Assembly: GCA_027579435.1 (NCBI GenBank)
Contig: JANBPK010000265.1
Coordinates: forward strand, 1 to 19,330
Reading direction: 5' to 3'
DNA from: Candolleomyces eurysporus
Lineage: Eukaryota > Basidiomycota > Agaricomycetes > Agaricales > Psathyrellaceae
Length of the DNA: 19,330 bases
The notes below the pieces were generated by a model. It ran no database searches, had not been told where the DNA came from, and saw only the letters and a list, made by a program, of their open reading frames with translations. The position numbers were made by a program, and so were the translations under genes. Positions 902-19,330 of the stretch are shown here, in pieces. The first letter of the stretch is position 1, and each line of letters starts with the position of its first letter.

Positions 902-1274
902 CACAGGGTTTTCTGCTCCATATTTTGAATCCAACTACATAGAAAATACATAGAAAAAACACCATATATTTTTAGTGTATTTTTACAAAAAAATACGAAA
1001 AAAATACAAGAGATTTGTATTTTCTGGAAAAAATACTGAGAAAATACTAAACTATTATGGGTCAAAACTAAGTTCCATTGGATTGATTTCTACTCACCAG
1101 GCAAACCAATAGAATTTGACTTTTGACCCATGATAGTTTTGTATTTTTTCTAGAAAATATATACCTTCTGTATTTGTTCTGTATTTTTTGTAAAAATACA
1201 CTAAAAATATATGGTGTATTTTCTATGTATTTTCAATGTATTTAGGCTCAAAATATGTGGTCAGAAACTCTGTG
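902..1274. repeat. Large AT-rich foldback (inverted) repeat
   Basis: The segment is close to a self-complementary hairpin. The left arm (about 902-1080) and the reverse complement of the right arm (about 1107-1274) share long runs such as ACCATATATTTTTAGTG, with a loop of about 25 bases near 1082-1105 (ATTGATTTCTACTCACCAGG). It abuts the copia integrase remnant on its right side, whose reading is lost at about 1270. It could be a MITE-like or foldback DNA element, or the product of an inverted duplication. No target duplication was found at its edges. Confidence 0.75.
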
Positions 1275-1674
1275 ACTGGTCCCCATACATTGCTGTGATA
1301 ACCTTCTCCTGGAGTGTTGGATCGTGTTTCAGCCTGCTTGGGAAAGAACTGGTGTGTCAACTTCGCTTCCAAGCATGGAATACAGGTAGGGGATGGAATG
1401 GATGATTCATCAACATCAAATCCGTTGACGAGTTTCTGATTGTGCATCCATTCAAGAGTCATCATCCCAATGTGTCTGAATACCTGGTGCCACTGGTCCC
1501 AGGTTTTGGCTGATGGATTTGTGAGATTTGCACGCTCTCAATGGAGTATGGCGCAAGCATCCAGGAGGTACAACCTTTCCAATTTCCTTCCCTTCCCCAC
1601 AACCTTTCCATTTCAGTCCTTCAGCTCACAGAGACCTTTCACAAAATGGACTTGCCCTCCACTTTCGTCAAACC
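1270..1674 (-). pseudogene. Ty1/copia pol fragment: GAG-pre-integrase and start of integrase
   Basis: Reading the minus strand from 1674 down, one frame gives FDESGGQVHFVKG, then a KLERLYLLDA block, the pre-integrase motif KTWDQWHQVFRHIG, a CxxC (CIPC) and the start of integrase (NTPGEGYHSNVWGP). This order is typical of the GAG-pre-integrase domain leading into copia integrase. Two in-frame TGA codons interrupt it (1613-1615 and 1538-1540). The homology ends at about 1270, where the foldback repeat begins. The upstream protease part of the same polyprotein is at 18920-19020, on the far side of the KDZ element, so the two pieces are halves of one retroelement split by a later insertion. Confidence 0.82.
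1667..1674. repeat. Left target-site duplication of the KDZ element (GTCAAACC)
   Basis: The 8-mer GTCAAACC is repeated exactly at 18920-18927. Removing everything between the two copies, plus one copy, rejoins the copia frame as LLSLSRFD followed directly by ESGGQVHF. That makes this a target duplication and not a chance match. An 8-bp duplication is, as I recall, the size reported for Zisupton-type elements. Confidence 0.85.
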
Positions 1675-2101
1675 AGGTCAATCAGCAGCAAATCAAAAGT
1701 GAGATGCCTTAGCTGGGTTTGGATCATATCAAGAATGATGACCCATTTTGGCCCAGCAAGGACGGTTGATGCCGGAGATTGTATACTCTAGCTGGGCCAG
1801 ATACGGCAGTTACATAATATTTGATTCCAGCGGGGCAGGATGTAGCTGTTTTTGCCTCTGTGACATGAGAAGGTCGGGTGGCTTCTTATGGACATGTTAT
1901 TGGAATACCCCCGAAATGTCAGGACTTCTGAACAGACGGACAGAAATGTACAAGAGAGAGCATTTGCAAGAGCATAGCAATAATTGATTGGGAAATGCAG
2001 AACACCGAGGCAGCCTTGCCTTGTGGCAAGATTAAGGTTAAAACCGGAGAAGCAGGTGGTTGTGTGCTACTCAACGCACTTCCTCTCCAACCCAGCTGGA
2101 A
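1675..2101. other. Left end of the KDZ element: subterminal repeats and dioxygenase leader
   Basis: No convincing gene is seen here. AGCTGGG occurs at 1711-1717, its reverse form GGCCCAGC at 1750-1757, and AGCTGGGCC again at 1790-1798. The same motif family occurs near the right end (CCCAGCT 18875-18881, GGCTGGCC 18835-18842, AGCTGGG 18784-18790). Such repeated subterminal motifs are usual transposase-binding candidates. The rest, to 2101, would hold the promoter and 5' leader of the dioxygenase gene; no clear TATA box was identified. Confidence 0.55.
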
Positions 2102-3460
2102 ATGGCGACTGAGGATAAGGATGTCCCGCCCGGCCTCAAATACTTGAAATTGTGTGCGCGCTATACACAAGACCTTGTTCGGGAACGCACAACTCAGGGT
2201 GGCGCCGTATTGCGCAACCGACATATCCCTCTCGATGTCAAAGTTGAGCTCGAAACAATGGTGGAAGTTTTTTGTGCTGCATGGAAAAACCCAGGTCAGT
2301 ATGTGGAATGGCCCTTCACCTGGTTATACCCCACTCATGGAGGAGCATCCTCAGTCATTATAGAAGGCAGCTTCGAGGAGCTTGTTGAAGTCTCCAAAAG
2401 CAAAAAAAGGGGGCCAGAGCAAGGACCAGGCCCTCCAGAATGCGTGGAAGCCGCCTTTCCAAACCCGATCCGATGGATCGAGAGTTGTTCTTACTTGGCC
2501 GACCATGTTCATGGATCGGGAGCACGTAGTATTCGCATGGTATCTTCCCGGTATTTTCACATCCCACCGATCAGTGAGTGTCTCTTTCTCTGTATCACAC
2601 TTTCTGGCTTCAGCTAGGTCTTCGGCAGGATATGGTTTTTGAGCATGTTAGGCGTGCTGGTTGTGAGACAAATAGTGTGCTCAGCATCGCCAAAGCTGGT
2701 AACGAAAATTGGAGGTGTGACGCTGAAACCTTTGCCGACCCGACCTGATGCCAGATCCCTCCCGGTCATGCAAATTTTAGTGCTTGTTGGTATGCTCAGG
2801 GTCATGGAGTGAGTCTACAGCGTATAGTCTCATTTTTTGTACAGCTGGGCTTATCCTTCTACCTTGAATAGCCACCCAACCACCTCCCAGGTCCCTCAAG
2901 CATGTTGAGCCCAAAGAAGGGGGGGACAAAACAGGGGACCTGAACTGCTTGAGAATTTGGAGGACACCAACATTCTTATTGGGACGTTGCTTTTGCTGGT
3001 GCATCCGGACCTTTTTGATATGCAGTATAAGGTGCTGCTTGAGGTGTACCGCAAGTTGCACTCTCAACGATGTCCCGTTTCTGATCCCAAGCTGACCAAG
3101 GAGGTGTTCAAGCACTGGTCCACACCATTCAGCGGGTTCGCCATCATTGCTAATCTGGAAACGCCCTTCCATCGTGATACAAAGGGTGGAAGGACCATGC
3201 TGGATATTCTCTCGGTATTTGGCAACTATTTGGGTGGCAGGCTCGAGATCCCTCTGCTCAATGCCCGATTTGTGTACAATCCAAGGACCGTGTTCGTTCT
3301 TCCTGGCTACTTGATGCAGCATGGTGCCAGCCGTACTGAAGGAGAAAGGGTGTGCATTGCTAGCTTCATGCGCCCTGCCGTAGGAGAAGGAATATTGAAA
3401 GGAGGGTACGAAACATTGGGACCTCATTGGCCGATGACCTCATGGAGTCGCTCGGGTTGA
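2102..3460 (+). pseudogene. TET/JBP-family 2-oxoglutarate/Fe(II) dioxygenase, interrupted
   Basis: The family oxidises methylated pyrimidines in nucleic acids. The model has four exons, 2102-2294, 2371-2573, 2614-2808 and 2891-3460; they join in frame to 387 codons. Exon 2 holds an AWYLPG motif, exon 3 PPGHANFS followed by an AQGHG, and exon 4 a VHPDLFD, all consistent with fungal TET/JBP proteins. The catalytic core is intact in exon 4: HRD (HxD iron ligands, codons 3170-3178), the second iron His in LMQHG (3320) and the 2OG-binding Arg nine residues on (3347) in GERVCIASFMR. A TGA at 2746-2748 stops exon 3. A second TGA at 2906-2908 depends on the chosen acceptor; one at 2953 would bypass it. 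This copy is therefore probably not functional at full length. The ATG at 2102 is the first that fits exon 1. Confidence 0.82.
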
Positions 3461-3531
3461 TGCGCGCGGAGGCACCTGCAGTCAATATTTGGGGACTCTA
3501 GATACAGACAGATACAACCGTAATTGAGAGA

Positions 3532-4302
3532 TTAGAATGCCCCAGTTGCCCGGTCAACTTTTCCCAACTGATGTGCCCAACAATTAAACCGGTCCAACAA
3601 TACATGAGTTCTGCCCTGTGAGGCCCGAAGCTCCGCAACATATGTGCCTGTGGCATGCATCGAGGCATCTAGCATTTTGATCAAGGCCTTCAACGTCTTC
3701 TGCCTATCGGGGGATGTGAGAGAGGGAGGCATTTTGAACCTGAGTTTCATCCGAACATCTGCCCAGTCTGCAATGACAACGTTGATGTCGGGAGACGGCC
3801 GATTTTCATCCCACCAAGTATTGATGAGGTCCAAACCTTTGGGCTCCTCATAGTCTAGACCGTCAACCAGGGTACCGGATGCCAATGCTCCCCAAATCAG
3901 CTTGTCTGAATGACTATAGAGAGTGACGCGACAGATGATATCGGTGAACGAGTCAATCAAGAGGCCTTGGGGAGTGAGACAGGCCTGCAATCTCTGAATC
4001 ACAATTGAAATTTCCTGTACCCTGTGGGTTGAGCTCAATATCGGGCGCGATGGGGCCAAACATACGAGTTCCTCAATGAATAGTTGGATTAGCCGTGCAG
4101 ACGAAGGCTTCAGTGTTTCCACGTTGGTATGAACAAACCGCAGGAACTTATCACGTCGGAAGGAGAGAAAAAGCAGCAATGAATGCCATTCATTGTCTGT
4201 CAAAGAGAATAGTCCGTTGAGGGACATGAGGAGAGGAGATGAAAGCAAAGTCAGTCGGGTCAGGTCGGGCATGGGGGGCATTGATCGGTGTTCATGTGAC
4301 AT
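3532..4302 (-). CDS. Uninterrupted hypothetical protein, 256 residues
   Basis: I do not recognise this gene. It is a single-exon frame from an ATG at 4302 to a TGA at 3532, without internal stops. The protein is mostly helical in appearance, with leucine-rich N-terminal sequence (LTRLTLLSSPLLMSLNGLF) and charged, tryptophan-containing segments toward the C-terminus (NTWWDENRPSPDINVV, IADWADVRMKLRFKMPP). No signal peptide, zinc motif or known catalytic motif is visible. It lies convergent to the dioxygenase gene (72 bases between stop codons) and downstream of 4413-5261 on the same strand. The frame stays open upstream into the ambiguous bases at 4314-4315, so the true start could lie further up. 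Being open while its neighbours are broken suggests either recent function or shorter decay. Confidence 0.55.
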   Translation of the reverse strand: MSHEHRSMPPMPDLTRLTLLSSPLLMSLNGLFSLTDNEWHSLLLFLSFRRDKFLRFVHTNVETLKPSSARLIQLFIEELVCLAPSRPILSSTHRVQEISIVIQRLQACLTPQGLLIDSFTDIICRVTLYSHSDKLIWGALASGTLVDGLDYEEPKGLDLINTWWDENRPSPDINVVIADWADVRMKLRFKMPPSLTSPDRQKTLKALIKMLDASMHATGTYVAELRASQGRTHVLLDRFNCWAHQLGKVDRATGAF

Positions 4303-4313
4303 ATGTATTATTT

Positions 4314-4315
4314 NN
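4314..4315. other. Ambiguous bases (NN) beside a G homopolymer
   Basis: Two undetermined bases precede a run of eight G, just upstream of the ATG of the 256-residue gene. This is most likely a sequencing or assembly uncertainty at a homopolymer, and it makes the exact 5' end of that gene unsafe. Confidence 0.9.
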
Positions 4316-4412
4316 GGGGGGGGTATGTACGGAGACAACGATGCAGGATTCACTGTACAAGCACCTCAATTGAGAGGTATACGGCTTCGGGGAGGCAAAT
4401 GGGGGTGGATTG

Positions 4413-5261
4413 CTAGTGTCCTCTGTCCTCCGACCCAATGTTCTCCCTCTCCTTCCCTTTGGCTGAACGCAAGCCTCCCAGACCGGCCGAGGGGTCTCTA
4501 GAGGCCGCTTGAGCAACCTGTACCTTCTCTGAAATGACCCGTTCTTCAATCACCTGGAATTGTTGCTTCAGCGTGGTTGTGAGTCCGATCGTGGTTCCAA
4601 TATGAATAAGTTCCGCATACAAGCACTTCTCTGAAAGATCCAGCTCCTGAATTGCATCGATTGCTAGCAAACAGCCCGTCTCCAGCTCTTGTCAGGAGGG
4701 ATATTGCAGGTTGGCCAGGTTGGTACCTGGGACGTCCACCGCAGGATTGGTATTGCGTGCTTGCGCTTGTCAGGCATCGATAATCGCAGACAGATCGAGG
4801 TTGAATCCGTCCGGAGGTGGGAAGGCTGCCCACCAGTTCAACGCATACCCTTCGAGCACGGTATCTGTCGGGTCGCTGTTGTCGAGGATGATATCACGTA
4901 GTTTAGGTTTCAGGGTGAGTTGGTCTGCAACAAACAAGTGGCCACATGCTTGAATTCCACGAGGAACAGAAAGCGAGTTGGGATGGAGCATCATACCCAA
5001 TCCCAATAAGTGCATTCCGAAAAGCTAATACAAAATACAAAATAGATAAATGGGCTGAGCATGGAGCTCATACAAGATACTCACTAGCTCGTGGGTGAGG
5101 TACTCTTGAAATTTTTGGCTTTCCTCGGCCGTGAGAGACTCCTCAGATATGAGGTATGAAAGAGCAGCAGCTTGGACTCGGCTTGAGGAATAGTTTAGGA
5201 GGGATTGAAACGATGGTCGGTCGATTCCGTGGAGAATGGGAAGTGTTTTGCGAGACAACAT
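4413..5261 (-). pseudogene. Unrecognised protein, about 262 residues, two in-frame TGA codons
   Basis: Two exons, 5261-5085 and 5024-4413, are joined by a 60-base GT-AG intron and read in one frame from ATG (MLSRKTLPILHGIDRPS) to TAG. The N-terminal part is helical; the middle has a hydrophobic LFGMHLLGLGMMLHP stretch just after the splice and an NWWAAFPPPDGFNLDL segment; the C-terminal part (from about residue 175) is helical and charged, ending in a polar tail. TGA codons at 4770-4772 (after IIDA) and 4692-4694 (after LQYPS) interrupt it, while the frame stays plausibly coding on both sides. No family is recognised. It starts only about 120 bases after the transposase stop on the same strand, so it may be transcribed as a separate downstream cargo gene. 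Confidence 0.55.
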
Positions 5262-5384
5262 AATGGTGGTGCAAGTAAGAAACTGATTGTGCTCGCAGAC
5301 AACTATGTATCAGATCAACCCTAACCTTACAACTGTACAATAGGTTTAGCATCAGTATCTAACACCCCAAACTGAAGGTCAGTC

Positions 5385-8300
5385 TTAATAATTGCTAGCG
5401 TCAGGTTTGAAGTCAGCATGCGACCCCGCGCAGGAAACAGCCACACCAGCTTTCAGCAGGAACTCGGCCAATGCCCAATCACCCAATCTCCTCCACATAT
5501 CTGCCTGGCGAAGAGCATATTCGTCACAGCCGTCCCCATAACCCATCCATGAATGCGCTGTTTCCGAGCGCTTAGTGCAGTATTGTACAAACCGGTCCAT
5601 CTCTGATTTCACCAGCGATATTTCCTCGTTCCACCAATCTCGGCGAGATGTTGCACGGATCCAATTAACCTGATACACTGTGTGGCCGGTGTTAAAAACA
5701 GGTATGAGTGAATGTACCGAGAGACCTCCATACCTTTGGCGAGGTAAGCAGCGTTCTCAGGAGAATTGGATTTGGTGTTGATGGTCCAGATCCAGGATAA
5801 GGTCACATCATGCTGACCTCTTGCATTTGGGTCGTATACGTTCGTTACCACCTTCGTATGCTCGGGTTTGATCTCTTCAAATATCGGGTACTTTCACTGC
5901 ACGTCTAAGCGATCCAAGGCCCATACGGCAGCATCGTACCGTTTTACATGGAAGCGAATTCCTTTGTCCACGTTCCGAATTGCATTATAGCCTCTGGTTT
6001 TGGCCTTCTTGCCTGCTGAGGCAGTGCCCTGATTCGCCCAATAAAGGTACGACTTGTGTGCGATCTCCACCCTCAAAGCCTCCAAAGCCTCATGGGCCTG
6101 CCCTACACGGAGTTGCTCTTCCACAGTTTCAACATGACTCCACCCACCGGGGCGGGTGTCAAAAGACGATGGTAGTGGCACAATAGCATGCTCCACATCC
6201 AATGGTTTGGGTCGAGGGTTCAACAACATGGCCATTTCATCAGCGCAGGTGCATTCATCATTACAGAGACAGATCTCATGGAGAATGGGTGCGCGTCCGA
6301 GCATTTGCTCCAACCTCGCCTGGGGAATTAGAACCTCCCCCTCTACCATGGTCAAGTTGAGCTTCTTTAAGATCATTTCCCGCTTCTTCTGAATCTCAAC
6401 AGACTGACTTGGCGTTGGTGATCGTCTGTGAGACCTGACTAGGTCGGCAAGCTGAATTCTGAAGTTAGATGGTAAATTGACAAGCACGAATCAAAGGGAC
6501 AAAAACGTACTGATGCTCCTGTAAATCAATGGCTTCGGCTACCCATCGGGTAACACCCAGCTGGGTATTATTGGCCTGCTCTTGCGCCATCAGCCTCACT
6601 TGAACGTCTTTCTTCGGTTCCACTAACACGTAAAATAAGCAAAAATTGCAAATAGGACGCAAGCTAACAGGTGAAATTTTGCTCACCTTTGTCTATGGCG
6701 ATGCAATAGATGTCCATCAAGCTTGGATCGGACCCGCGGTCTGCATTGGCCATGGTCATCTGTTGACGCCACAGCACCCTTTGCTCAGGGGTGACCGCTG
6801 CATCCACATCCTCAAATGAGGTCTGGGCTTCATCATGCTCTTCCTCTGCCTTTTTGACCTGGCAAATCAGGAACGGGACTAAAGATGCAAGTTACAGTTA
6901 TAGGGTTGACGTCGGCAAGTGAGTCAGGGACTGGATGCTTACTGAGGCCCTGTAGCTTCCTCCAATTGATGTCAGCCATGCAGGCATCCAGCATTTCCTG
7001 TTGATGTGACACAGTCATCGTGTGGGTGATATTGGCTGCACCATTGAGCTGTGACCAGAGAGATTCAATGATTTCTCCACTAGCAACACCGGCGCCAGGA
7101 CTCAGGTATGAAGGTGCAAAGCGCCACAAACACTCTTCCTTGTGACCATGCACATGGAACAGGCCAATGAGGTATGTGACAGGAAGGTTTGGGGGGAATC
7201 GAAGACCCAAATTGGCAATCCAACAGCAAAAATTGACACAGTACTGGCAGTTGATGTCATATGCAAATAACAAGCCATTCGTACTCTCAGCAGAGGTGGT
7301 TATGCATGCTTCAGTGAGGGAATAGTCAACGTTGAGCTGCCTATTCACGTGGTACCATTAGAGCTTGTAACAACACAGAAAGAATTGGCGGCTATTGTGA
7401 TTATACCTTTCACCCTTCTGCATATCTACAACACTTCCTGGAGCGAAGCATCCATGTCAACTACAGGCAATGGCCACAAGACCAGTGGAATCATAGCCCC
7501 TCTTAGCTTTGTTCTTGTCAGCGACGGCGCGATGCTCATAACACATGGATAGCTGAGGGATAGATCGGCCGAGATGAGGACAGGCCGTGGGTGTGGAAAT
7601 ACTGAATCGTACCTCATTGTATTCTGTTGTCTTCTGCACATAATCGTCATAGCAGGCTTTTTCAGACATATAACAAGTGCCATCCGCCAAAAACACGGTC
7701 TTATCCTTGTTGAGACCATGCGATTGCAAATGGTTCAGGACAAAGTGCCATCAGCTACGAGATAACGACAGTATTTCCAGCTAACATCCAGGAATCAGGT
7801 TCGGGAAGACACTGATAAAACCACCACCACTCACGTATCAGGATTGTCTTTCCAATCATCGGGCAAGTTCTCATTGGGCTGTGGACAAGCAGCACAGAAC
7901 AGCGCTAGGTCCCCCCTACCTGGCTTACAGCCCTGATTCTTGTGCCCGAAGCCATATCGTTTCAGGTTGATGAGATGATTCCACTGTTGCCAGGCTCGGC
8001 CGAGCTCACGTTGTTGGTCCTGCACGGGCAGAAGTACATGAGCTTATGCCTAATGTCAGATAATTGGAGACTGACCGGTGTGTCATCAGGGAAGACAAAA
8101 CTAGTGAGTCACCTGAGGAGAGTACTGTAGTTCTCGGTTGACAGATGCGTTTGAACTTTGATAAGATGGAAGAATTTCAAAGCTTCAAAGGTAAACACAG
8201 TGGAGGGATCTTTGGCAGACGCGGGGTACAAGCGGGAATGGAGGAGCTGAATATCAACATCAACCTTCTTGTTGCACATACAGGGATATACAGGGAGGTG

Positions 8301-9112
8301 ATGAAGGCCGTTGATGTGGATGACCGTCATTACCTTCCCATTCCCCAGGGCCTGGGAGGTAGGTTTTGCTCCATAGGTCGGGTCGGCCGAGAAAGTCGGG
8401 TCGGTTTTCATCATATTGTTGACCCTCAGGCAGCGATGGACCAACTTGTCTGGAGTAGTTAGATACCCTGGGCATAGTAACCCCTTGTGACCCAAGAAAA
8501 TAGCCGCCCCCACATGCCAGAGCCAGGCTGGTTGAAAGAAGGATCCGTTCCACCGTTCAATTCGGTGAAATGGATGCAGGTTATGGGCTGAGCAGCAGCA
8601 TGCCCGACAAAGGGTTTTGTCGGACATACAATCCATACAACGCCATAGCATGGTATCGTCCACTCCACACCAAAAGCAGGTATGTATGCCGAGAGCTTCT
8701 GTCTTCAGAATGGCCTGAAGATAGATCTCACACTTGTTTTGTACCCACTCCTCCATGTAATCCAGGGTCGTCTAGAGGTGGAGGATGGAAAGTGCAACGT
8801 GAGCAACCAGGTACTGACCTTTCCTTGGCTGGTACGGTCATCAAAGGGGATAAACGCATGGTCCAAATAGGGATGATCTATCCCAATGGGTTGGGAAGAT
8901 GTAATGTTGCCAGATGGGCTCAGGTCGGCCAATGGTGGATCATAGATGTCCTCGCAGACTCTAACCTTTGGCAAGGGTCGGGTGGATCTTTTGACCGGCA
9001 AGGCTGAATGAGAGGGTTTCAATCGAGAGGTTCGGGACCGGTGCCGAGATCTCTGCGAAACGGGGTCTTCTTCGATATAGCTGGTACTGACGGTGTGCCA
9101 CTGTGAAGGCAT
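5385..9112 (-). pseudogene. KDZ transposase with CxC2 cysteine cluster, nine exons, interrupted
   Basis: This is the DNA-cutting and joining enzyme of the element. Exons: 9112-8819, 8771-8076, 8019-7835, 7780-7407, 7340-6943, 6878-6687, 6622-6511, 6458-5734, 5677-5385; all junctions are GT-AG with matching phases. The original product would be about 1,089 residues. An N-terminal basic tail is followed by the CxC2 zinc cluster (8678 to about 8550: CFWCGVDD, RCMDCMSD, LCRACCCSAH), a further CAAC near 7890, and the RNase-H-like core with FAYDINCQYC (Asp at 7256-7258), FHVHGHKEEC and GEIIESLWSQLN (about 7045-7080). The C-terminal part is helical (SWIW, then RDWWNEEISLVKSEMDRF). Breaks: TGA at 8109-8111, 7457-7459 and 5894-5896, and one base missing near 7745 in exon 4 (GTFVLNH frame). 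The key core residues I can see are still present. Confidence 0.93.
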
Positions 9113-9354
9113 CAGAGCATACAGCAAACAGGTCACTGAGGCTGGGTATTTATACCAGACCTCAACTCTGCCATATTTCAACATGTCCTTCGGCCCCTCC
9201 TTGCAAATCTCCTCCATCCGGCATGTCCTCAGATCCTGCCCCCATTCCCCAACTTCCCGACACCTCGGGCAATCTTGCCAGTACCTCGGATGCAGAATTA
9301 GAGCCTTATCATGGCCTCGAGGATCATGAGACCTTTGTCTGAGAAAGCCCCACA
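9113..9354. promoter_or_regulatory. Divergent promoter between transposase and HMG-protein genes
   Basis: These 242 bases separate the start codons of two genes that point away from each other, so they must hold both promoters. A TATA box for the transposase is visible on the minus strand (TATAAATA, 9147-9154). No equally clear TATA element was found for the HMG gene. Several plus-strand open frames cross the segment but have no coding support. Confidence 0.55.
9147..9154 (-). promoter_or_regulatory. TATA box of the transposase gene
   Basis: TATAAATA on the minus strand lies 34-42 bases upstream of the ATG at 9112. That spacing would give a very short leader and supports the chosen start over an upstream in-frame ATG near 9184. 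Confidence 0.5.
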
Positions 9355-11582
9355 ATGGACAGTCGGTTCCACACCGTACAGCTGGCCTACCTGCAGTCTT
9401 GTTGGGTAGAGTACTTGTTTGCGACAGCTGAGCAGAAAAAGGAGATCCCGTTAACCGCAACTGATCACCTGGTTGCGCTTGTGGAAAAGGCTGGGCGACA
9501 GGTTTCTGATACTGAAAGGACTGGGCTGCAGAAGGTCAGGCCCAAAAGTACATTGAAGAAGTCCTGGATACTCACAACTATTTCTTCATAGAATGTTCGG
9601 GAGTGGTTTATGCAGAAATGTCGGAGGAAGAAAGACCTCCCCAAGTTTGGGCCCAAGTACACCGGTCTGTCTGTCTTTGCCCAGACGAACAAGCTGAGGA
9701 TTGCTGCTTGACAGCGCCAGCTCTTTCATAAGCAGCTTGGGTATGAGGCTCCGGGTGAGTCTATCAAATTTGAACTCCCCATCGACCCGCCTTCATCAGA
9801 CGAAGAGCAGGATGAGGACAAGTTGCCTGACTATGGCGGGAAATCCCCGACACTGTTCTACTTTTACAAGAAGGCCTTGAAGCATGAGTGGGACCTCCTT
9901 ACTGAAGATGAAAAGCTATCGTATGAGAAGAAGGCAGCCGAGTGGCGTGAACACAGGGCAAATGAGGAGGATAAAGTCCGGTAAGGCCACATCTTCTGCA
10001 ATTAAGTCCAAGGTCTAACCCAAGCATCCAATTTCCTCAGTTTGGCTGAGAATGACCTGGTGCCGTACGTAGAACATTTCTGCCACACAATGTTCAACCA
10101 TCTTGGTGTTTGTGTTGCAGTCCTGTGTGGTAGGGTGAACCTTGCAGGCAAACTTAGAATCTGTGAAAATATCCCCTCTTTAAAAGTGTCCCACTGGCTG
10201 AAGTTTGAATGACAGCAATGCTCAACTTCAATGAGAACCATGGTGGGACCGGGTTCAAGCAGACCAAGCAGGAGGGGATTAAGAACACAGGTATTATGCC
10301 CCTCTGGGCAAAGTACAATGCATCGGTCATGGGGCTGTCGTCAAACCCATATGAAATTCCCTGGGAGCTAAAGGTGAATGAGTATGGGGAGCCACTCCTC
10401 AAGGATCCAATGAACATACCGGATCTATATCAATGCTGGAGCACTCTTCCAAAGGTTCTGAGAGCCTTCATCAAAGGCCACTATGGTGAGTCCATAGAAA
10501 TCTTCATGTTGGTCATGCTGACGCCTCAGTGACCAGCCTGCGCATCCGGACGCAATCCTAGCAAAGTGAGACCCCCATGGGGCGAGATGTTCAAGCAACC
10601 TCAATCTTTCTTCTTGGCCGACCATGTTCCCGAGAAATATTTTCCCATTTTTTGTGATCCCTCCAAAGTCAATGTTGGCTTGGTGGAGGAGTTGTTGAAT
10701 CTCTTTTATGGGAAGCAAAAGGAAGGAAGGATTGCTTTTGAATTCCACAGCTATCTTGGGTCGAAGGGTGTCTTCCATCTACGCCTTCCTCGAGAGGCCA
10801 TTCAGGCATCGTCAGCTGAGGATGGACAGTCCATGCCTCTTCTAAAGCCTAAGCTCAAGAAGAGGGCACGAAAGGCCCAGAAGCAATCTGTAACCTCGGC
10901 AACAGTCTTTCAGGGAAGTCACCTAGAAACAAAGGTCGATGGAGGTGGTGAGAAGGTGAAGGTTTACACCCCTCCCCCCATGGCAGGCCCGATTGCCCAG
11001 GTGCTGGCTACCCCTGCTTCTAATGATGAGGCAAATTGGGAGGATGTTTTGCTGCAGGCCCCGATTTCAAAGCCCATGCATGTCCCTGCCCGAAAGAAAG
11101 CAGTCATTCTGGACAGTGATGATGACACTGCCGACCCGCACTCACACTCCACTCCAGCACTTCCAATGGAATCTATGCCTGAAAAGCCATCTGGGCGTCT
11201 GATTCAATCCATACCGGCCACGGTGAAGTCCAGCCCTCTTCAACCCATATTTTCTCCAGCCAAACTGAAGACCAGGCACAAGGCACCACAAACTCCCACC
11301 ATGCCACCCAATGCGACTCCACTTCCTTCCGCTGATGACGATGCCACACCACCTCCCATCACCCCTCTGACCATTGACACCCCTGTTCATAGAAAGCACA
11401 AGGCTGCCAAGAGCAGTAAAACCGAGGTGACAAAAGGACGAGAACAAGTTGGGGGCTCCTCTGCCCCAGCAGCAAAACCATCCTCGTCGGCCAAGGAGAA
11501 GGCTCTCCTTGCAGATGCAGCATCAATCGGAGCGTTGGAGATTGGAAAGAGAGTTCGTAAGCCTAGGATACGAGATTCATAG
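9355..11582 (+). pseudogene. KDZ-associated divergent HMG-box protein, interrupted
   Basis: Four exons (9355-9534, 9592-9980, 10041-10485, 10537-11582) are joined by GT-AG introns of 51-60 bases; the ancestral product is about 686 residues. Exon 2 carries an HMG-box-like helix set (TLFYFYKKALKHEWDLLTED, then EKLSYEKKAAEWREHRA, about 9848-9960), matching the divergent HMG proteins known on KDZ elements. Exon 4 starts with a conserved WGEMFKQPQSFFLADHVP block and ends in a long Ser/Pro/Lys-rich low-complexity tail with basic, NLS-like patches (KLKKRARKAQK, KRVRKPRIRDS). A TGA at 9709-9711 breaks exon 2. Near 10210 in exon 3 the frame shifts by one base (after HWLKFE, resuming at AMLNFNENHGG); an unrecognised mini-intron is an alternative. 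The gene is divergent from the transposase and probably acts with it on element or host chromatin. Confidence 0.78.
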
Positions 11583-11731
11583 TAGATCGGACTCACACCT
11601 GTTACCATGAAATGTATATTCATTCCTCTGATCACCGTGCTTCCCATTTCCATCTTATGAGTTCAAGAGCCATGATATTCAAGATATGTCGTATCGCATA
11701 GTAAGTAAATAGATAGAAAAGATCGGATCTG
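11583..11731. other. Short convergent intergenic region
   Basis: About 150 AT-rich bases separate the stop codon of the HMG gene from that of the kinase-like gene, which is read on the opposite strand. It presumably holds both 3' ends. No canonical polyadenylation signal or other feature was found. Confidence 0.4.
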
Positions 11732-13607
11732 TCAACCCTCAATCACATCGATCCCCCACTTCCTCAAAAATGCCTGGTCTGGACAACTACAGTGCTTACA
11801 CTCTTTGAGGGGTACCGAAAGGTTGAAGTCGATGAGTGTGAGCTTGCCATGGGCATCGATCATCATGTTGTCGGGTTTGATGTCATGGTGATGCCACCCA
11901 AGCTCATGCATTGGCTTGACGATTCTATTATAGAGGTTGTTGCTGCGTTTGTCAGCCAAAATTTCTGAGTGAATAAGAAAGATCAACTCACACAATAGAC
12001 TTATCGAAATTCTGGAGAGGCGCTCCATGGTACGTCATGACAAGGAAGGGGACAGGGGATGCCCAAGGCCTAGCAGCAGTTGTGCCATGAGCAATGAGAG
12101 AAGGGGAATGCTCCATGCATGCAAGGCCTTGCAAGGCCTTGAGCTCCCTCTCAAATCCACTCTCCTCCAAAGCATACTTGATTACAAACCCCCATTTTTG
12201 ATAGAGGCAGATTGTTGCAACATCCCAATACATGATTGAGTCGGGAGGGAGAGGCGCATGAATGAAATGAGTCCAGTCGCTTCTGTAAGACATTTTATGA
12301 GTATGTACACAACTGAAATGAGAAAGCCACTCACGAACTAATGATTGACGAAACGGTGACCGGACTGGTATCGAATGACTTGATAAATTTGAAAGGAAGC
12401 TGGGGTCCAAGAAGGTTGAACAAACAAGAGAGCGAGTACTGGAGTATCTTCTTGATTGGCCAGAGGATTGACCCAAGAGCTCCCAATGGCTTCTGAGAAC
12501 CAAGGGTCCGAGACTCATCTGGACAAATTGTTCTCTCAATTGAATCCTTCCACTCTTTCCACATCGGGTGCTCCTCCATCCCTTTCTGAACCCCTTCCAA
12601 TGCCTTGACCCAAACACAGAAACTGAACCACATGGATTCACAGAAGAATTTTTGCCATACATTTGGGTCCCAAGCATCTGCACTCCGTGGTATCTGATTG
12701 TCGCCTAGGAACGCATGTGCTTCGTTGTTGTCCGTTCCCATAACGCAGGCCGGACAAAAAAGGAAAGGCAGTGCAATAAGGCAGCCAACCTTTAGCTGAG
12801 CCTTGTAACACACCTCGAGCACCTTTGTCATAGCTTAATGATATGATTTGTGAGAAACAAAAAACTCACTCACTTGGCTGAGGATTTTTAAAGCCACTTC
12901 GTCATGGTCTTCATTCAACGCCTCGGAGGCCCCAATCGCCTGCCCCCGGAAGCTGTCCAAGCCTTCATTGAGCCCAGAGGACCCTCCTGCCATGGGTCCC
13001 TTCCCCTCCATAAATGCCAGGCGGGGTTCAGTCCTTTTAGAATATTTTCTCTTCCCATCGTCGACTAGGTTGCCTATGTAGGCTGAGATGTCGGGAGCAG
13101 TTTTTGTTCGACCTTTTTGATCCCTGATGATAATGATGTTCTGTTCCTTGAGGATGATCTTGAACGCCTGGAAGAATATAATGTTCAGGCACTGCAATGC
13201 AGGCACGACAATGTTTTCTATCACCAGGGTCTCCTTCAACTCGCATGGCTGCTGCAGACCCAGGTTTCCAAAGGCCATTTTCACGTTCTCCCACTTGAGG
13301 TCCCATGTGTGGTCCAAGAAGGACTTGGGAGGGCCGGGATAATTCCACGTGTGCAGGTAAATTTTCATGCTGTCAAGTAGATCTGCTGCAGCTTTGGAGT
13401 GGTGACTGGATGGGGTTGCGGGCCCCGGGCCAGCTAGACCTGGTATGACTAGTACCTGACTCCAGTGATGGGCGAGCTTCCGGGGGGAGGAGATGTCATA
13501 CATTGCGTCCATGGGTGAGATGAGGTGAGGGTAAAGGGTACAGACACGTTTAACCCAGTCTGAACACAAGCTTATCTCAATCACACATCATGCTTACTGA
13601 TATGCAT
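11732..13607 (-). CDS. Protein kinase-like protein, 561 residues, intact
   Basis: Five exons (13607-13598, 13559-12874, 12822-12335, 12282-11992, 11942-11732) join to exactly 562 codons with no internal stop. The first 350 or so residues are unrecognised. Exons 4-5 carry a small kinase-like fold: a GFVIKYALEE strand with the candidate ATP-binding Lys (12177-12179), FERELKALQGL as helix C, a PVPFLVMTYHGAP hinge, the catalytic-loop motif HHDIKPDN (Asp 11882-11884) and LTLIDFNLS, where DFN replaces DFG. The chain ends about 35 residues later, so most of the usual C-lobe is missing. It resembles the small atypical kinases expanded in mushroom fungi. The first exon (10 coding bases, MHI) and its 38-base intron are the weakest part of the model. 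It is the only intron-rich gene in the element without a lesion. Confidence 0.75.
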
Positions 13608-13741
13608 TTCTGCTCTATATCTATATCTAGCAAGTGGTGCAAGACTTGCAGTTCTCTGAACCTTGAGGATTGCAAGAGTGCCATATAGTATTCAAAGCAT
13701 ATCATATAGCATTGTAAACGGATAGAAAAAATTGGGAGGAG

Positions 13742-13998
13742 GGATCAAGTACGTGGGTGTGATTGCCCCAACGCTTCTGATGCCAACCCAGTAGGGGGAG
13801 ACCTCGGGCAAGGACGGTGCTCCTGAGGAGTGGAAACATTACTGAGCGAGGGTCGGGTGACACCTGACACAATGGCTCCGGGGCTCGGGAAACTTGGTGC
13901 TGAACTTTGACGCTGGCTCAAGGCCAACAGATATTGCTGATACTCTCAAAACTGACCCCTCACAGTGCTGAATGACTGCTCCTGTATGCATTGGGAAG
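13742..13998 (-). pseudogene. Duplicated 3' fragment of the coiled-coil gene
   Basis: This segment is a direct repeat of 14488-14745, roughly 80% identical by eye. It shares CGCTTCTGATG, GAGGAGTGGAAACATT and GGGGCTCGGGAAACTTGG. On the minus strand it encodes the same Ser/Pro-rich C-terminal motif (TRPSLSNVSTP) as the coiled-coil protein, with frames now broken. It sits between the kinase-like gene and the tail of the parent gene. Confidence 0.75.
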
Positions 13999-14004
13999 TT
14001 CAGC

Positions 14005-14095
14005 AAAGCTGGGACTGGGGTAAGATGTTCAAGCAGCCTGGGTTGTTCTTTGCAGACCACGCACCTGATAAATATCTTCCCACCAATGGAGATGC
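14005..14095 (+). pseudogene. Fragment of a second HMG-protein gene copy
   Basis: From AGCAAAG onward this stretch matches the start of exon 4 of the HMG gene (10559-10650). It encodes WGKMFKQPGLFFADHAPDKY where the full gene has WGEMFKQPQSFFLADHVPEKY. Identity is only about 75% at the base level, so it derives from a diverged relative and not from a recent copy of the neighbour. Nothing else of that gene is present. Confidence 0.6.
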
Positions 14096-14429
14096 GGGGA
14101 TTCAAGCAAAGCATCGGGTGATGAGCCGGCAGCCTTACGCCAGACAACAAATGTGTCGAAGTGATAATGAGTAGATAAGTGGTGTCTCGCCCCATTTCCC
14201 CAGGCCATTGAGAATTTGAACTTGATTTGACCAACATGACTGAAGGGGATGGCAGAATGGAATGTTCAAATTGTTGCTAAGGCAAATTATATACAAAAAA
14301 ACGTGGCGCTAGAGATAGACTGCATAGATGTTACCATAAGCAAGGCCCACAACAGACCAACAGGGCCATAAGGCAAGGAGAGACCGATCAATGTCCTCTC
14401 GCTTCACCTCTTGCTGTGGCCCGTGTTTG

Positions 14430-17400
14430 TCAAGGGGCTACATCAACTTCAGCCTCTTCTTCTTCAGCTGGCGGGGCCTGGGGAGGGAGATCAGTATGTG
14501 AATATGATTGCCCTGACGCTTCTGATGTCAACCCAGTGAGGGGAGACCCCGGGCAAGAATGATGCTCCCGAGGAGTGGAAACATTGCTGAGTGAGGGTCG
14601 GGTGGCACCCAATGCATTGGGTCTGGGGCTCGGGAAACTTGGCATCGAACTTGACGCCAACTTGAGGATGGCAGGTATTGCTGATGCTCCCAAAACTGAC
14701 CCCTCTGCCACACTGAATGGCGTCTCCAGTGTGAAAATGCATCCTGGGTTGGTCACTGATTTCAGAGCTGCTGAGCTGACCGAACTCCCTTGAAGTTGTC
14801 GATGAGGCATTAAATGCCCGAGAGAGACTGGAGCAAGCATGAACTTGCTGCTCGTTTTCATGCTTTCTCCCAGAGCGTGGGTCATCAGGCTGTTCACAGG
14901 AACCAATGGAGGGGCAGCTGGACCTCCCAAGGTGTTGCCAGACAGGCTGGGTGCGCTCCTCCCACCCTCTCAATTCCAAGGCACCGTTACATCCGGGCAA
15001 AGCAAACTACCCACCGCCTCCACCACGTCCATTGCTTCCACAATACGGCCTGTAGTTTCCCCTCTGGGTGCCATGCCTCCTGACTCATCCATCTGTTCTT
15101 TATAGTCCAGACTGATGCGTCGAGAGTGTCTTGACGCAACTTTATCTCGTTGAGGAGAAGATCAGATAATTTCTTTGAATTGTCAAACAGCCTCCAAAAC
15201 ACTGCTGAAGTTCTTGTAAAGCTCAGCTTGTGCTTGAGTTTGTTGCAACATCATCTCGTGGACACTGTGGAGGTGGGTGTGAACTTCCGTTTGCACTTCT
15301 TGGCCGTGGGCCACCAGTGTTTGTCCCATTTCACTCTTGAGTTGCTCAATCTGTAGACGTACGCCTTCTTTCTGCACTCAGATGAGCTCTTCTAATGCCT
15401 TCAAGGAGTTAGCCAATGCCAACCCCTCCCCTGATGTCTCTTCTCGGTTTGCCATGCTTCTGAGTTGGGTCTCAAAGCCACCCAGTCGCTCGCTGAGCTC
15501 CTTGCTGCTATTGTCCTCGGCCATCTGTGCTTTGAGACTTGATAGACGTTCCATCAGCTCTTCCAATTCCTTTCCAACAATCTCATCAACTCTCTTGTTC
15601 ACCGCCTCTTCCATCCGCTCCAGCAAGAACCATGAAATCTTCTGATGAACGATAGCTTCCAACTCCTTGGAATCAACCACCATCCCATTGCCAGCGGCAC
15701 CAACACCCTCTTGACCTCCATTTTTTGTCATCTTGGCAAGTTTTAGGTCGATAATATTCTCGGCCTGGTCCTGGGTGAGGGATGACACACCCAAGGGAAC
15801 TGTCCCTCCCTGTTTGAGTAATTCCACTCTCTCAACAGATTGGTCACAGATTCCTCGACTCGCTTCATCTCCTGTGTTTGTTTCTTGCTCATGGTGGCAA
15901 TCTGCAACTGAATCGATCTCTGGGTCTTGTTGACAAAAGGGCGAATGTCGAGGTTTTGGAATCGCCCGTCGAGGCTCTCAAAGTCCTCCTGCAGCTTCTC
16001 AATGGCATCCTGGTTGTGCTCATCACGTTTGTAGAGCTCGGATACCTTGGATATTATCCCTTCCAACTCCCGTCATACGCCTGAGAGTTGCCCTCGAAGC
16101 TCAGACATGGTCATCTCGTGGGAGACGGCTCTCTCAATATACGTGGCAACTGCATCCTCTATATTCTCGGCAATGAATTCATGTTGAGTTCCAGGGACAA
16201 CTCTTTGCCTGCCCTGGTGTTGATCACGACTCCCTGACTTCTTCGATCACAGCCTCGCTCAGCTGTGCTACCATCGGGTCAGAAGAGGTTCACGTACCTT
16301 GGTCGTCTTTCCACTCTCTTTCGATGTTGACAACTGGCCAGACCCGTTTGACTTGCCGGGTGCTTTACGATTCGCTTCACCTGATGCCTATTGCGAGTGG
16401 TAAGGACAAACGAAAGGATTGCATGCGGATGGAAGTCCTCACCTGCTTTTTAACTTGGCCTTTCCCTTGCTCCTTTGCTGCCTTTGGTCTCTTCTCCATC
16501 TCATTGTCACATTTGCTCTCACAGTAGGAGTCCGAGCCCACATTTCCACCGGTACTTTGATGTTTAGCTTTAGGGGCACGTTTTGCTGGACCCTTGGATA
16601 CCCTGCTGTGGCCTTTGGCAGACTGATTTTCAGACTTGCGTGCAGGCAGCTTTGTCTTGGGTTTGGGTTTGGACTCTTCTGCCTCCAGTTCCAGTTCATC
16701 TTCTTCTCCATCCCCTGCCCCACCCTTCGCATATTGACACTTGAGCTTACTCTTTGAGCATTCAGTACACGCCTGATTCTCAAACCATGTGGAGCATTCC
16801 ACCTTGCGCCGTGCACATGTTTGGCATGGCGGGTCGTACACCTTCATCATCTCCAATTTCTGCGGCTGTTGCTTCTTTGCCTGAGCTCGTGCCTTCCCCT
16901 TTGCCAATTTGGGCTCTCCCGGTACATCCCCACCCTGACCCAGTTCATGCCCCGCAACTCCTCCCACCCGCCGAAAAGTTTCAAGGTCTGTCTTTTGTCG
17001 TTTGGTTGGAACTTCTTGTTCCAGCGGCTCCATCTCATCATCAGAGACAATCGGTGTTCTTCGTTTCTTCCCCCCAAATTCCTCAGGCTTGGGAGCATCC
17101 AAATTCATCGGCTCTCCCCCATGCCAGAAGTCCCGCCCCTTGGCCGTCCCTTCCTGCTTCTTCTGCTCCACATGTTCGCCGCCATCCCGAGTATCCGTAT
17201 TCTTCGGGTCCGTGCCTTGGGCTGAATCTGTCTCAAAGTCTCCAGTTTGTGGATCCACAGGTAGTGGTTCTGGATTTGAGAACACAGAGAGATCAAGGGG
17301 TGCTTTGGGATCGGATATCCAGTCATCATGCTGCACAAGGATGGCGACCCATGCCTCAACTCTTGGGCAGCATTTTTTGGCGGTATCAATGGCGCCCCTG

Positions 17401-17646
17401 GCAGCTATTGCCATCTATAAAATGGATGAGTCAGGCCCTACATTAATAAAGTTAAGATTCACGCGCCATGGGACTAAGAAGGAGCCGTCTGGCCTTCATG
17501 AGGTCCGTGTCCTTTGCTATCCACTGAGGTGCAGCGGTCAGGCAGTGGTTGAGGAACCCGATTACTTCAGGTAGGGCCTTCTTTTCAACGCTGTCGGTGA
17601 ATGGAAGCAGCTCCTCAACAGTTTGGAAGTCAGCATAGGAAGACAT
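14430..17646 (-). pseudogene. Zn2Cys6 zinc-cluster protein with long coiled coil, interrupted
   Basis: Exons 17646-17463, 17404-16443 and 16387-16298 join in phase, and a long last exon runs from about 16262 to 14430. Exon 2 encodes an acidic/basic linker with NLS-like KKRRTPIV and TKRQK, then a six-cysteine cluster with the exact spacing CX2CX6CX8CX2CX6C (16826 to about 16735), the Gal4-type fungal binuclear zinc pattern. The last exon encodes some 300 residues of heptad-rich coiled coil (for example RLQIEQLKSEMGQ and KELEELMERLSSLKAQMAE) followed by a Ser/Pro-rich tail ending in an EEEEAEVDVAP segment. Breaks: TGA at 16224-16226, 16073-16075, 15378-15380 and 14970-14972, and frame shifts near 16215, 15845, 15195 and 15120. 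It may be a DNA-binding or scaffold cargo protein. The region from 16300 to 16050 is the least certain. Confidence 0.65.
14488..14745. repeat. Parent copy of the direct duplication
   Basis: This is the 3' coding end of the coiled-coil gene. It recurs in the same orientation at 13742-13998, about 745 bases away. The two copies have diverged by many substitutions, so the duplication is not recent. Confidence 0.75.
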
Positions 17647-17823
17647 GGAGGTTCGACTAGAAGTAAGTGCGCTGGAACGAAGAAGAGTGGATGGAAGTAG
17701 TAGTCGAGGCAAGGTTCCAGCATACATTCACGTGGTACCTGATTTAGAACTCCGTCGGGTGATCAATCCCCACATTCTCAATTTGTATCTATTCTTGGCC
17801 GTTCACGCTCTACATCCAGGCCA
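17647..17823. promoter_or_regulatory. Divergent promoter region, coiled-coil gene and small plus-strand gene
   Basis: Only 177 bases lie between the start codons of the minus-strand coiled-coil gene (17646) and the plus-strand gene (17824), so both promoters must share it. No clear TATA box was found on either strand. The arrangement repeats the one between transposase and HMG gene. Confidence 0.4.
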
Positions 17824-18579
17824 ATGTCCAAAGAAGTGGAAGGATGGGAGAATGTGGGGGATGGCATATTAATGAGGAAGTCGAAGCTAGGTAAGTACCC
17901 TTGCACACTCACTGCCCGTCATTGTTCTGGACTTTGCCTTTCATTCTCTGCAGATCACAACGTCCAAATGAACGATGCAACTGAGGATCGTGATAAGAGC
18001 ATAAAAGCCAAGCCAAACCCAGGTGCGCGTCTCAAAGCATATCAGGACCGCCTGACCTGATTGTTTGCGCCAGAGGAACAGTGGGCACAGTACCGGGACC
18101 AGCTCTTCAATGTCCCTCAATAGGTGGACGCTGTTGGTTCCCTTACAATTCCCTTGCAACCGGAGGCTTCTGATGTGGTCGATCCAGTTCCCAACCACGT
18201 TTCTCAGGTGGCATCATCAACAGAAGCTTTGAAGAGACTGGCTAATTCTGCGAGGTTGTCGTTAATGCACTCCTTGCCCGACAACGAGGCTGCTGGCCCT
18301 TCCAGTCGCTCAGGTGGCACAGGTGGAATGGACAACACCAATCTGTCAGTCGCAGATATGCTTGACTGGAATCTTCATTCCATTGGTGCCATCGCCGTTT
18401 CGTCCAAGTTCCTCGAATCCCATCTTTGGGACCTAGAGTGGATGCGACTTTGCCTAGAGGAGCACTATGGGCAGACGTTGCGTCTCCGTCTGATGGCAGA
18501 GAAGAACTTAGCTGCCATTGAACATGCGCTTTTCATGGAAACCCAGAGGAATATGCTTGCAGAGGCAATTGCGAGGTGA
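17824..18579 (+). pseudogene. Unrecognised small gene, about 230 residues, two nonsense codons
   Basis: Exons 17824-17890 and 17954-18579 are joined by a 63-base intron (GTAAGT...GCAG) and read in one frame from ATG (MSKEVEGWENVGDGIL) to TGA. The N-terminal part is polar and charged. The C-terminal 75 residues are a strongly helical, leucine-rich, coiled-coil-like segment (LDWNLHSIGAIAVSSKFLE and onward to NMLAEAIAR). A TGA at 18058-18060 (after QDRLT) and a TAG at 18121-18123 (after FNVPQ) interrupt it; the TAG could also be the end of an unrecognised intron. No family is recognised. Its position beside the coiled-coil gene suggests a partner protein, but that is a guess. Confidence 0.5.
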
Positions 18580-18919
18580 GCAGAGTAGAGTAGTTGCTAC
18601 CTCCCTTATACTACATTGTATTTCATGTCACTTATCTTTGATCTGTCACTGTGCATATATGGGAACACCAAGATTTAGACCACCCGATGCACAATTGTAT
18701 TGGATTCTATCCGAGGGCCTGGCTAGTGACAGGCCGACATCTGATGATCCTGGTGCATCACATTGATCTATGGCAGTTGACAAAGCTGGGAAGGTCCCTC
18801 CTAGTGTTACCTTATGGGGATTGAGACTGACCCAGGCTGGCCAAGATTTAGCATCAGTCATGGACCTGATGCACCCCAGCTGAGCCATATGTCATTGATC
18901 CTGGCTATGTCATAGGGTG
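18580..18919. other. Right end of the KDZ element: subterminal repeats
   Basis: No gene is seen. AGCTGGG (18784-18790), GGCTGGCC (18835-18842) and CCCAGCT (18875-18881) belong to the same motif family as the left end. Reverse-complemented, positions 39-84 from this end match positions 37-83 of the left end at AGCTGGG, TGATG and TTGGCC. The outermost bases contain a near-palindrome CTATGTCATAG (18905-18915). Confidence 0.55.
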
Positions 18920-18927
18920 GTCAAACC
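18920..18927. repeat. Right target-site duplication of the KDZ element (GTCAAACC)
   Basis: An exact copy of the 8-mer at 1667-1674. On the minus strand it completes the copia motif SRFD, which continues across the element at the left copy. Confidence 0.85.
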
Positions 18928-19020
18928 GACTAAGCGATAAGAGGCAGTTCGGTGCCCCTGGAACATATAGCACATTCTTGAGCTCATGAGTGACGACATT
19001 GATGTGCAGGTAGCGAACTA
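18920..19020 (-). pseudogene. Ty1/copia pol fragment: end of the protease region
   Basis: The minus strand from 19020 encodes THELKNVLYVPGAPNCLLSL and then SRFD, the conserved block that follows the copia aspartic protease. It stops exactly at the KDZ target duplication and its continuation lies at 1674-1270. Gag, the catalytic protease triad and the rest of pol are absent from the window. The frame is lost near the ambiguous base at 19021. Confidence 0.78.
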
Positions 19021-19233: not shown

Positions 19234-19330
19234 AAGTGACTTTGCTAACACACGGTAAGGTTCAAGATACGACGAATAACTTCACGAACAGAGAACATGG
19301 TCTCGAGCAACTTTAACGCAAGAACGATTC
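19234..19330 (-). repeat. LTR-like dispersed repeat, right copy (runs off the window)
   Basis: The reverse complement matches 254-350 over 97 bases with about seven mismatches, and homology stops at the same point in both copies (after AAAGTCACTT). It lies upstream of the minus-strand copia protease fragment, as a 5' LTR would. The outer part of the repeat is cut off by the window end. Confidence 0.65.

What the first reader, a model, noticed from the sequence alone, without database searches (positions are those of the whole stretch)
1675..18919. A complete-length, cargo-rich KDZ transposon with its target-site duplication, nested in a copia element
Seen: GTCAAACC flanks the 17,245-bp segment on both sides, and joining the flanks rebuilds a copia protein (LLSLSRFD to ESGGQVHF). 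The segment encodes a KDZ transposase, a TET/JBP dioxygenase and an HMG-box protein. Known: basidiomycete KDZ elements often carry TET/JBP and HMG genes. Inference: the other five genes are also cargo, which would make this an unusually large multi-gene element.
Basis: partly seen in the sequence, partly recalled or inferred. Interest (0 to 1): 0.92.

Follow-up and report, generated by a model that had tools for sequence, protein, structure and literature searches.

The report
Seven-gene TET-carrying Kyakuja transposon
This mushroom DNA holds a 17-kilobase jumping gene that landed inside an older one; it carries seven genes, among them one predicted to erase DNA methylation marks, a related element in the same genome carries the same seven, and this copy likely can no longer move on its own.

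Summary
The element is 1674-18919 (17,246 bp, CAG...GTG) with a 7-bp duplication (GTCAAAC); the eighth shared base is the element's own first C. Another copia copy (contig C176) spans the site without it. The host is Candolleomyces eurysporus. A sister subfamily (copies 96.5-99.2% alike) has the same terminal positions; 5 of its 8 left flanks match a right flank over exactly 7 bases. One of its copies carries the same seven genes: TET/JBP dioxygenase, unknown G2, KDZ transposase, HMG-like, kinase-like, Zn2Cys6/coiled-coil and small helical proteins. All seven show dN/dS below 1 (0.09-0.33). Termini, duplication length and TET type match published TET+ Kyakuja elements, so this is a known kind. 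Not found in the papers searched: this gene set; an 8.7-kb inversion of the transposase/HMG-like/kinase block separating the subfamilies; a kinase gene 92% identical between subfamilies inside DNA about 75% identical, introns included, implying recent exchange; matched subterminal inverted repeats. The window copy is degenerate: 15 stops in 26 compared stretches, 13 of them TGA, and more CpG loss than its relative.

The parts
1667..1673 (.). left copy of the 7-bp target-site duplication GTCAAAC
1674..18919 (.). the element, CAG...GTG, 17,246 bp
   Evidence: related copies stop at these positions in different surroundings
1698..1763 (+). left subterminal inverted repeat (approximate limits), proposed transposase site
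   Evidence: aligns to the inverted right repeat at matched distance; 19 of 2000 shuffles reach the score in the window, 0 of 2000 in the sister subfamily
2102..3460 (+). G1, TET/JBP dioxygenase (with introns; limits estimated)
   Evidence: PF12851 E 1.2e-17; CcTET E about 1e-24; dN/dS 0.086
3532..5261 (-). G2, unknown protein (limits estimated; two TGA against C25)
   Evidence: dN/dS 0.173
5385..9113 (-). G3, CxC2 + KDZ transposase, broken in this copy (limits estimated)
   Evidence: PF18758, PF18803; stops and a frame break; dN/dS 0.129
9223..11582 (+). G4, HMG-like protein, two TGA in this copy (limits estimated)
   Evidence: weak HMG_box_2
11732..13503 (-). G5, kinase-like protein (VIK, HHD, DFN read by eye); its DNA is 92% identical to the sister subfamily
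   Evidence: Pkinase just below cut-off; island
13700..14150 (.). debris: partial duplicates of G6 and G4
   Evidence: direct repeats D1, D2, D6
14430..17646 (-). G6, Zn2Cys6 / coiled-coil protein, several TGA in this copy (limits estimated)
   Evidence: Zn_clus E 0.0063; cysteine pattern kept in C25, C138, C48, C1219, C532
17824..18579 (+). G7, small helical protein (limits estimated)
   Evidence: long C-terminal helix predicted
5461..14144 (.). block (G3, G4, G5) that is inverted in the sister subfamily
18831..18895 (-). right subterminal inverted repeat (approximate limits)
18920..18926 (.). right copy of the 7-bp duplication GTCAAAC
1223..1666 (-). copia host element, left flank (GAG-pre-integrase)
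   Evidence: PF13976 E 1.4e-06; C176 match from 1275
18927..18994 (-). copia host element, right flank
   Evidence: C176 match

Best explanation
The 17,246-bp segment at 1674-18919 is a seven-gene, TET-carrying DNA transposon of the Kyakuja type, inserted in a copia retrotransposon with a 7-bp target duplication, and it likely moved by cut-and-paste when its KDZ transposase still worked. Shown: ends, duplication, a paralogous empty site, the gene set, and a sister subfamily with the same gene set and terminal positions. Inferred: the CxC2/KDZ transposase binds the subterminal inverted repeats about 25-90 bp in from the CA...TG ends, excises the element and inserts it. The TET enzyme would oxidise 5-methylcytosine on the element and so slow silencing and CpG decay. 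The Zn2Cys6 and HMG-like proteins would bind DNA, and the kinase would modify element or host proteins. Cargo can likely be rearranged and exchanged between subfamilies: the transposase/G4/kinase block was inverted once, and the kinase gene was exchanged recently. This copy is degenerate and would move only with transposase supplied by a relative.
For: Matched 7-mers at 5 of 8 left flanks plus the window's own pair; empty copia site C176; KDZ, CxC2 and Tet_JBP above Pfam cut-offs; CcTET residues HRD, the following G and D, and the third H kept; all seven genes on C25; five of seven in the distant family C532 in the same order and strands; dN/dS 0.086-0.332 for the seven genes; subterminal inverted repeats. 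Published TET+ Kyakuja: 7-bp duplication, CA..TG, no terminal repeats (PMC12730594).
Against: No reference Kyakuja transposase could be placed in a tree. No sister copy was seen complete from end to end on one contig (C25 lacks the outermost left part). Contigs C1062 and C25, which share a 7-mer, overlap in sequence (98.9%), so haplotypes or assembly error may be involved; pair C395/C1219 matches only 6 of 7; five flanks have no partner. C532 lacks a detectable G2 and kinase, and C767 likely lacks kinase and G4, so not all genes always travel. HMG, kinase and Zn-cluster hits are below Pfam cut-offs. No intact transposase was established in any copy; C25 itself has an ambiguous base and frame change in that gene. 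The copia flank is as CpG-poor as the element (0.49 against 0.55), so the depletion is not special to it. Methylation, expression and transposition were not measured.
Confidence: 0.9

Rival explanations
1. A smaller TET + KDZ transposon swollen by chance: the other genes are host genes or nested elements caught once and not maintained.
For: The kinase is not detected in C532, its DNA is far more alike between subfamilies than the rest, and C767 likely lacks kinase and G4. Homologs of G4, G5 and G7 were found only in Candolleomyces.
Against: The seven genes are shared by two subfamilies about 75% identical, with dN/dS well below 1 for each; five of them recur in the 22-65% identical family C532.
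Confidence: 0.07
2. Assembly artefact or chance repeat: the two flanks were joined wrongly and the shared 8-mer is accidental.
For: The window is a whole contig of a fragmented assembly with three ambiguous bases.
Against: Flanking copia continuity in C176, related elements ending at the same positions, and five further pairs of matched 7-mers, where about 0.004 exact pairs are expected among 8 x 9 flanks (my arithmetic).
Confidence: 0.01
3. For the kinase island only: strong constraint on the kinase gene, not recent exchange, keeps it alike between subfamilies.
For: The kinase dN/dS is below 1 (0.212).
Against: Its introns are 90-97% identical (131 bases) and its dS is 0.29 against 0.64-1.38 in the other six genes, with sharp edges at the gene.
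Confidence: 0.1

Closest known systems
TET+ Kyakuja DNA transposons of Agaricomycetes (Kojima 2025, PMC12730594: Kyakuja-1_LB, Kyakuja-2_LB)
   Same: KDZ transposase, AG-type TET, 7-bp duplication, CA..TG termini, no terminal inverted repeat, mushroom host
   Different: Here a seven-gene set with kinase-like and Zn2Cys6/coiled-coil genes, subterminal inverted repeats, an inverted-block subfamily and a kinase exchange; the paper's text parts that I read do not describe the other genes of Kyakuja, and its supplement was not available
KDZ transposons with TET/JBP and divergent HMG genes (Iyer et al. 2014, recalled; not held)
   Same: Association of TET/JBP, KDZ transposase and an HMG-like gene
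   Different: That work, as recalled, inferred linkage of genes; here ends, duplication and copies are base-exact
Cryptococcus KDZ1-KDZ3 (PMC12810828, passages)
   Same: KDZ transposase with a cysteine cluster, about 9-11 kb
   Different: Those have 139-241-bp terminal repeats, 4-8-bp duplications and CxC1; here no terminal repeat, 7 bp, CxC2 and a TET gene
Starship elements (recalled; search listing)
   Same: Large cargo-carrying fungal elements
   Different: Starships use a tyrosine recombinase and are mostly much larger; here a KDZ transposase with a 7-bp duplication

Membership tests
TET+ Kyakuja (KDZ) | KDZ transposase domain with a cysteine cluster | tested here: met
   PF18758 E 9e-23 and PF18803 CxC2 E 8.4e-21
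TET+ Kyakuja (KDZ) | 7-bp target-site duplication | tested here: met
   window pair and five exact pairs in the sister subfamily
TET+ Kyakuja (KDZ) | 5'-CA..TG-3' termini | tested here: met
   CAG...GTG in the window and in the sister ends read
TET+ Kyakuja (KDZ) | no terminal inverted repeats | tested here: met
   10 of 40 terminal bases match; the repeats found are subterminal
TET+ Kyakuja (KDZ) | AG-type TET (CcTET-like, HxD with the following G and D) | tested here: met
   alignment to CcTET, 7vpn and 8jkk; residue roles from PMC12730594
TET+ Kyakuja (KDZ) | transposase falls in the Kyakuja clade | not tested
   reference transposase sequences were not at hand
Zisupton / Cryptococcus KDZ | 8-bp duplication (4-8 bp in Cryptococcus KDZ2 and KDZ3) and terminal inverted repeats | tested here: not met
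   7-bp duplication and no terminal repeat
Starship | tyrosine recombinase captain at one end | tested here: inconclusive
   no such Pfam domain among the 27 proteins and open frames scanned; not every frame was scanned

The most novel reading that the evidence does not exclude
Kyakuja elements are modular cargo vehicles of mushrooms: a conserved five-gene core (TET, KDZ, HMG-like, Zn2Cys6/coiled-coil, small helical protein) plus exchangeable cassettes such as the kinase, with gene blocks that can flip and cassettes that pass between subfamilies, forming a self-contained anti-silencing package.
Probability: 0.35. Interest if true: 0.72.

Novelty: new variant of a known kind. Interest (0 to 1): 0.52.

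Why it matters
It gives base-exact ends, an empty site, a recently expanded sister family (96.5-99.2% identity between copies) and a seven-gene set under purifying selection, for a transposon group whose cargo roles are open. It makes testable whether transposon-borne TET enzymes protect their own element from methylation: the window copy shows more CpG loss and mostly TGA stops, while the young copy C25 is less CpG-depleted. The kinase island and the inversion suggest that cargo is exchanged and rearranged in modules.

Tried and rejected
An 8-bp duplication was rejected because the eighth base is the element's first C at each left end read. Kinase loss in C1062 and C138 was considered and dropped: both contigs leave the element at the same repeated sequence, in opposite orientations, so they say nothing certain. 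RIP-type hypermutation was rejected: CpG transitions are raised about two-fold in both directions of comparison, with no TCG preference (ACG is slightly higher). The lack of a stop in the TET catalytic exon is not significant: about 0.5 would be expected in its 169 codons (my arithmetic). The direct repeats 13748/14493 as cause of the inversion: in the window they lie on the same side of the block, so they do not explain it. C312 was fetched to see the block edge in a closer relative, but 18501-21000 has no match to the window. Structure prediction of G4 failed (mean pLDDT 32.3); that of G7 shows one confident long helix (mean pLDDT 57.8). Fold searches were therefore not run.
Full report
Host and location. 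The window is the whole contig C865 of a 65.85-Mb, 1296-contig genome. A protein search returned the window's own kinase as a protein of Candolleomyces eurysporus on a contig of 19,330 bp, a mushroom of the Psathyrellaceae.

Ends and target site. The flanks share GTCAAACC. Besides the window and C176, a search of the same genome with the left end gave 8 places and with the right end 9, each stopping at or within six bases of the element boundary; searches with sister ends added the left end C491 (82%) and a partial match, C990, that does not reach the end. Search lists are lower bounds. Reading the flanks, each left end begins CAG and each right end finishes GGGTG. Of 8 distinct left flanks (C650 and C456 share one) and 9 distinct right flanks, five pairs share an exact 7-mer: GGTTAGG (C1102/C463), AACGTTT (C501/C1070), CCTGTCC (C1125/C7), TGTGCGC (C650, C456/C138), GGTCTCA (C1062/C25). 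A sixth pair, C395/C1219, matches 6 of 7. Left flanks C354 and C491 and right flanks C48, C1056 and C1157 have no partner. The window's own pair is GTCAAAC. The duplication is therefore 7 bp and the element runs from 1674 to 18919. One caution: C1062 and C25 overlap in sequence at 98.9%, so they are not simply the two parts of one copy; haplotypes or assembly error may be involved.

Empty site. In contig C176 one stretch matches the left flank (7855-7456) and the right flank (7463-7389), overlapping on a single GTCAAACC. The joined flanks align to it across the site, and its translation reads LLLLSRFDKVGGQVHF. The left flank encodes a GAG-pre-integrase domain. C176 is a different copia copy, not the pre-insertion allele.

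Genes. Seven: TET/JBP (2102-3460 +), G2 (3532-5261 -), CxC2/KDZ transposase (5385-9113 -), G4 HMG-like (9223-11582 +), kinase-like G5 (11732-13503 -), Zn2Cys6/coiled-coil G6 (14430-17646 -), G7 (17824-18579 +). Limits are my estimates from open frames and from conservation with C25. Pfam supports Tet_JBP, KDZ and CxC2 above cut-off. Pkinase (31.2 bits for the last exon against 31.7), Zn_clus (17 against 21) and HMG_box_2 (15.2 against 22.4) are below cut-off. The Zn2Cys6 cysteine pattern is present in G6 of the window, C25, C138, C48, C1219 and the distant C532. The TET catalytic exon aligns to CcTET (7vpn, 8jkk; E about 1e-24) with HRD, the following G and D, and the third H conserved; their roles are taken from PMC12730594. 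Homologs of G4 were found only in C. eurysporus (4 proteins), of G5 (5 proteins) and G7 (2 proteins) only in Candolleomyces; these searches need shared 5-residue words and scored at most 8000 candidates each.

Travelling together. Match lists for seven exon queries (tallied) give C25 7 of 7 genes besides the window, C354 5, and C1102, C767, C138 and C532 4 each. A direct comparison of C532 adds G6, making five: TET+, KDZ-, G4+, G6-, G7+, at 22-65% residue identity; G2 and the kinase were not detected there. Many contigs end or break off inside the element, so missing genes are often no evidence of absence. In C767 the TET-to-KDZ spacing is 4.4 kb instead of 10.3 kb in C25 and neither kinase nor G4 is listed: likely an internally shorter copy (sequence not obtained).

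Selection. Between the window and C25, dN/dS (Nei-Gojobori, exon pieces) is 0.086 TET (169 codons), 0.129 KDZ (660; one exon without a hit), 0.173 G2 (366), 0.191 G7 (162), 0.212 kinase (320; first exon without a hit), 0.255 G4 (695) and 0.332 G6 (842). A cruder run with mixed frames gave 0.19-0.47. The seven genes were thus likely kept by selection for much of the time since the subfamilies split.

Inversion. In blastn the outer parts (2102-5289 and 14371-18919) run colinear with C25, while 5461-14144 runs in reverse. The left edge is seen in C25, C354, C1102, C1125 and C1062, the right edge in C25, C138 and C1219. The block holds three genes (KDZ, G4, kinase). C532 has the window's arrangement, and C735 and C368 agree for the TET/KDZ pair, so the sister subfamily is likely the derived one.

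Kinase island. Within 11830-13503 the window is 91.7% identical to C25, against 76% (74% with gaps counted) over the rest of the aligned element; C354 and C1102 give the same. In 100-bp bins it is 86-97% from 11800 to 13499, next to 66-69% and 78%. The three introns are 97%, 90% and 97% identical (131 bases in all, limits approximate) and kinase dS is 0.29 against 0.64-1.38 for the other genes, so protein constraint does not explain it; recent exchange or gene conversion does. The direction is unknown.

Termini. There is no terminal inverted repeat (10 of 40 bases match), but an imperfect inverted repeat lies at matched distances of about 25-90 bp from both ends. Of 2000 shuffles, 0 reach the score for the sister ends (left from C1125, right from C25), 19 for the window, and 1 and 3 for the two crossed comparisons; direct orientation scores 16 against 40 and 24. 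I propose these as transposase sites.

State of the copy. Against C25 frames, 15 stops fall in 26 matched window stretches (13 TGA; 8 stand where C25 has arginine); a few lie near exon ends, one is the G6 end itself, and these may not count. The TET catalytic exon has none; the kinase frames have one, in the tail of a stretch. The transposase also shows a frame break near the VADG stretch. Of 702 C25 CpG sites, 306 read TpG or CpA in the window; the reverse is 160 of 509; GpC controls are 161 of 907 and 130 of 847. By context, CpG transitions are 0.25 and 0.18 in the two directions against 0.11 and 0.10 elsewhere, without a TCG preference. CpG observed/expected is 0.55 for the element, 0.72 for C25, 1.05 for C25's flank, but also 0.49 for the window's copia flank, so the depletion is not special to the element. 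This fits loss of methylated CpG in an old copy; methylation was not measured. I did not establish an intact transposase in any copy.

Literature. Kojima 2025 (PMC12730594; text parts 1-5 of 7, figure legends and passages seen; supplement not available) reports TET+ Kyakuja with 7-bp duplications, CA..TG termini and no terminal repeats, in five orders of Agaricomycotina. That is what this element is. Passages only were seen of PMC12810828, PMC7641404, PMC8290104 and PMC8889193; Iyer 2014 is not held and is cited from recall. Searches for cargo, kinase or HMG with Kyakuja or KDZ and for transposons in Candolleomyces listed no title or abstract that describes this gene set.

Noticed in passing
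window 902-1274: A palindrome-like, MITE-like stretch (arms 902-1003 and 1173-1274, 82% complementary) sits in the copia flank; the C176 copia match begins at 1275, so it is likely another insertion.
   Followed up: partly
window 254-350 and 19234-19330: LTR-like pieces in inverted orientation at the two ends of the window (93% complementary), so the left LTR piece does not belong to a simple copia element in the orientation of the coding flank.
   Followed up: no
G000 contig C767: A sister copy with TET-to-KDZ spacing 4.4 kb instead of 10.3 kb and no listed kinase or G4: a likely natural short variant.
   Followed up: partly
G000 contigs C312, C1047, C976: Fragments 80-85% identical to the window's G6 or G7 proteins: closer relatives of the window subfamily, decayed or cut at contig ends.
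   Followed up: partly
G000 contigs C1224, C152, C1278: More distant TET genes on contigs that also carry kinase genes 47-53% identical to G5; C1224 and C152 also match the KDZ exon.
   Followed up: no
G000 contig C1062:1866-4139: Open frames with a P-loop (GAAGAGKS, read by eye) that look like a NACHT-type NTPase gene, beyond the point where this contig leaves the element.
   Followed up: no
window 13748-13961 and 14493-14705: Direct repeat (83% and 78%): partial duplicates of the G6 end next to a G4 fragment, close to one inversion edge.
   Followed up: partly
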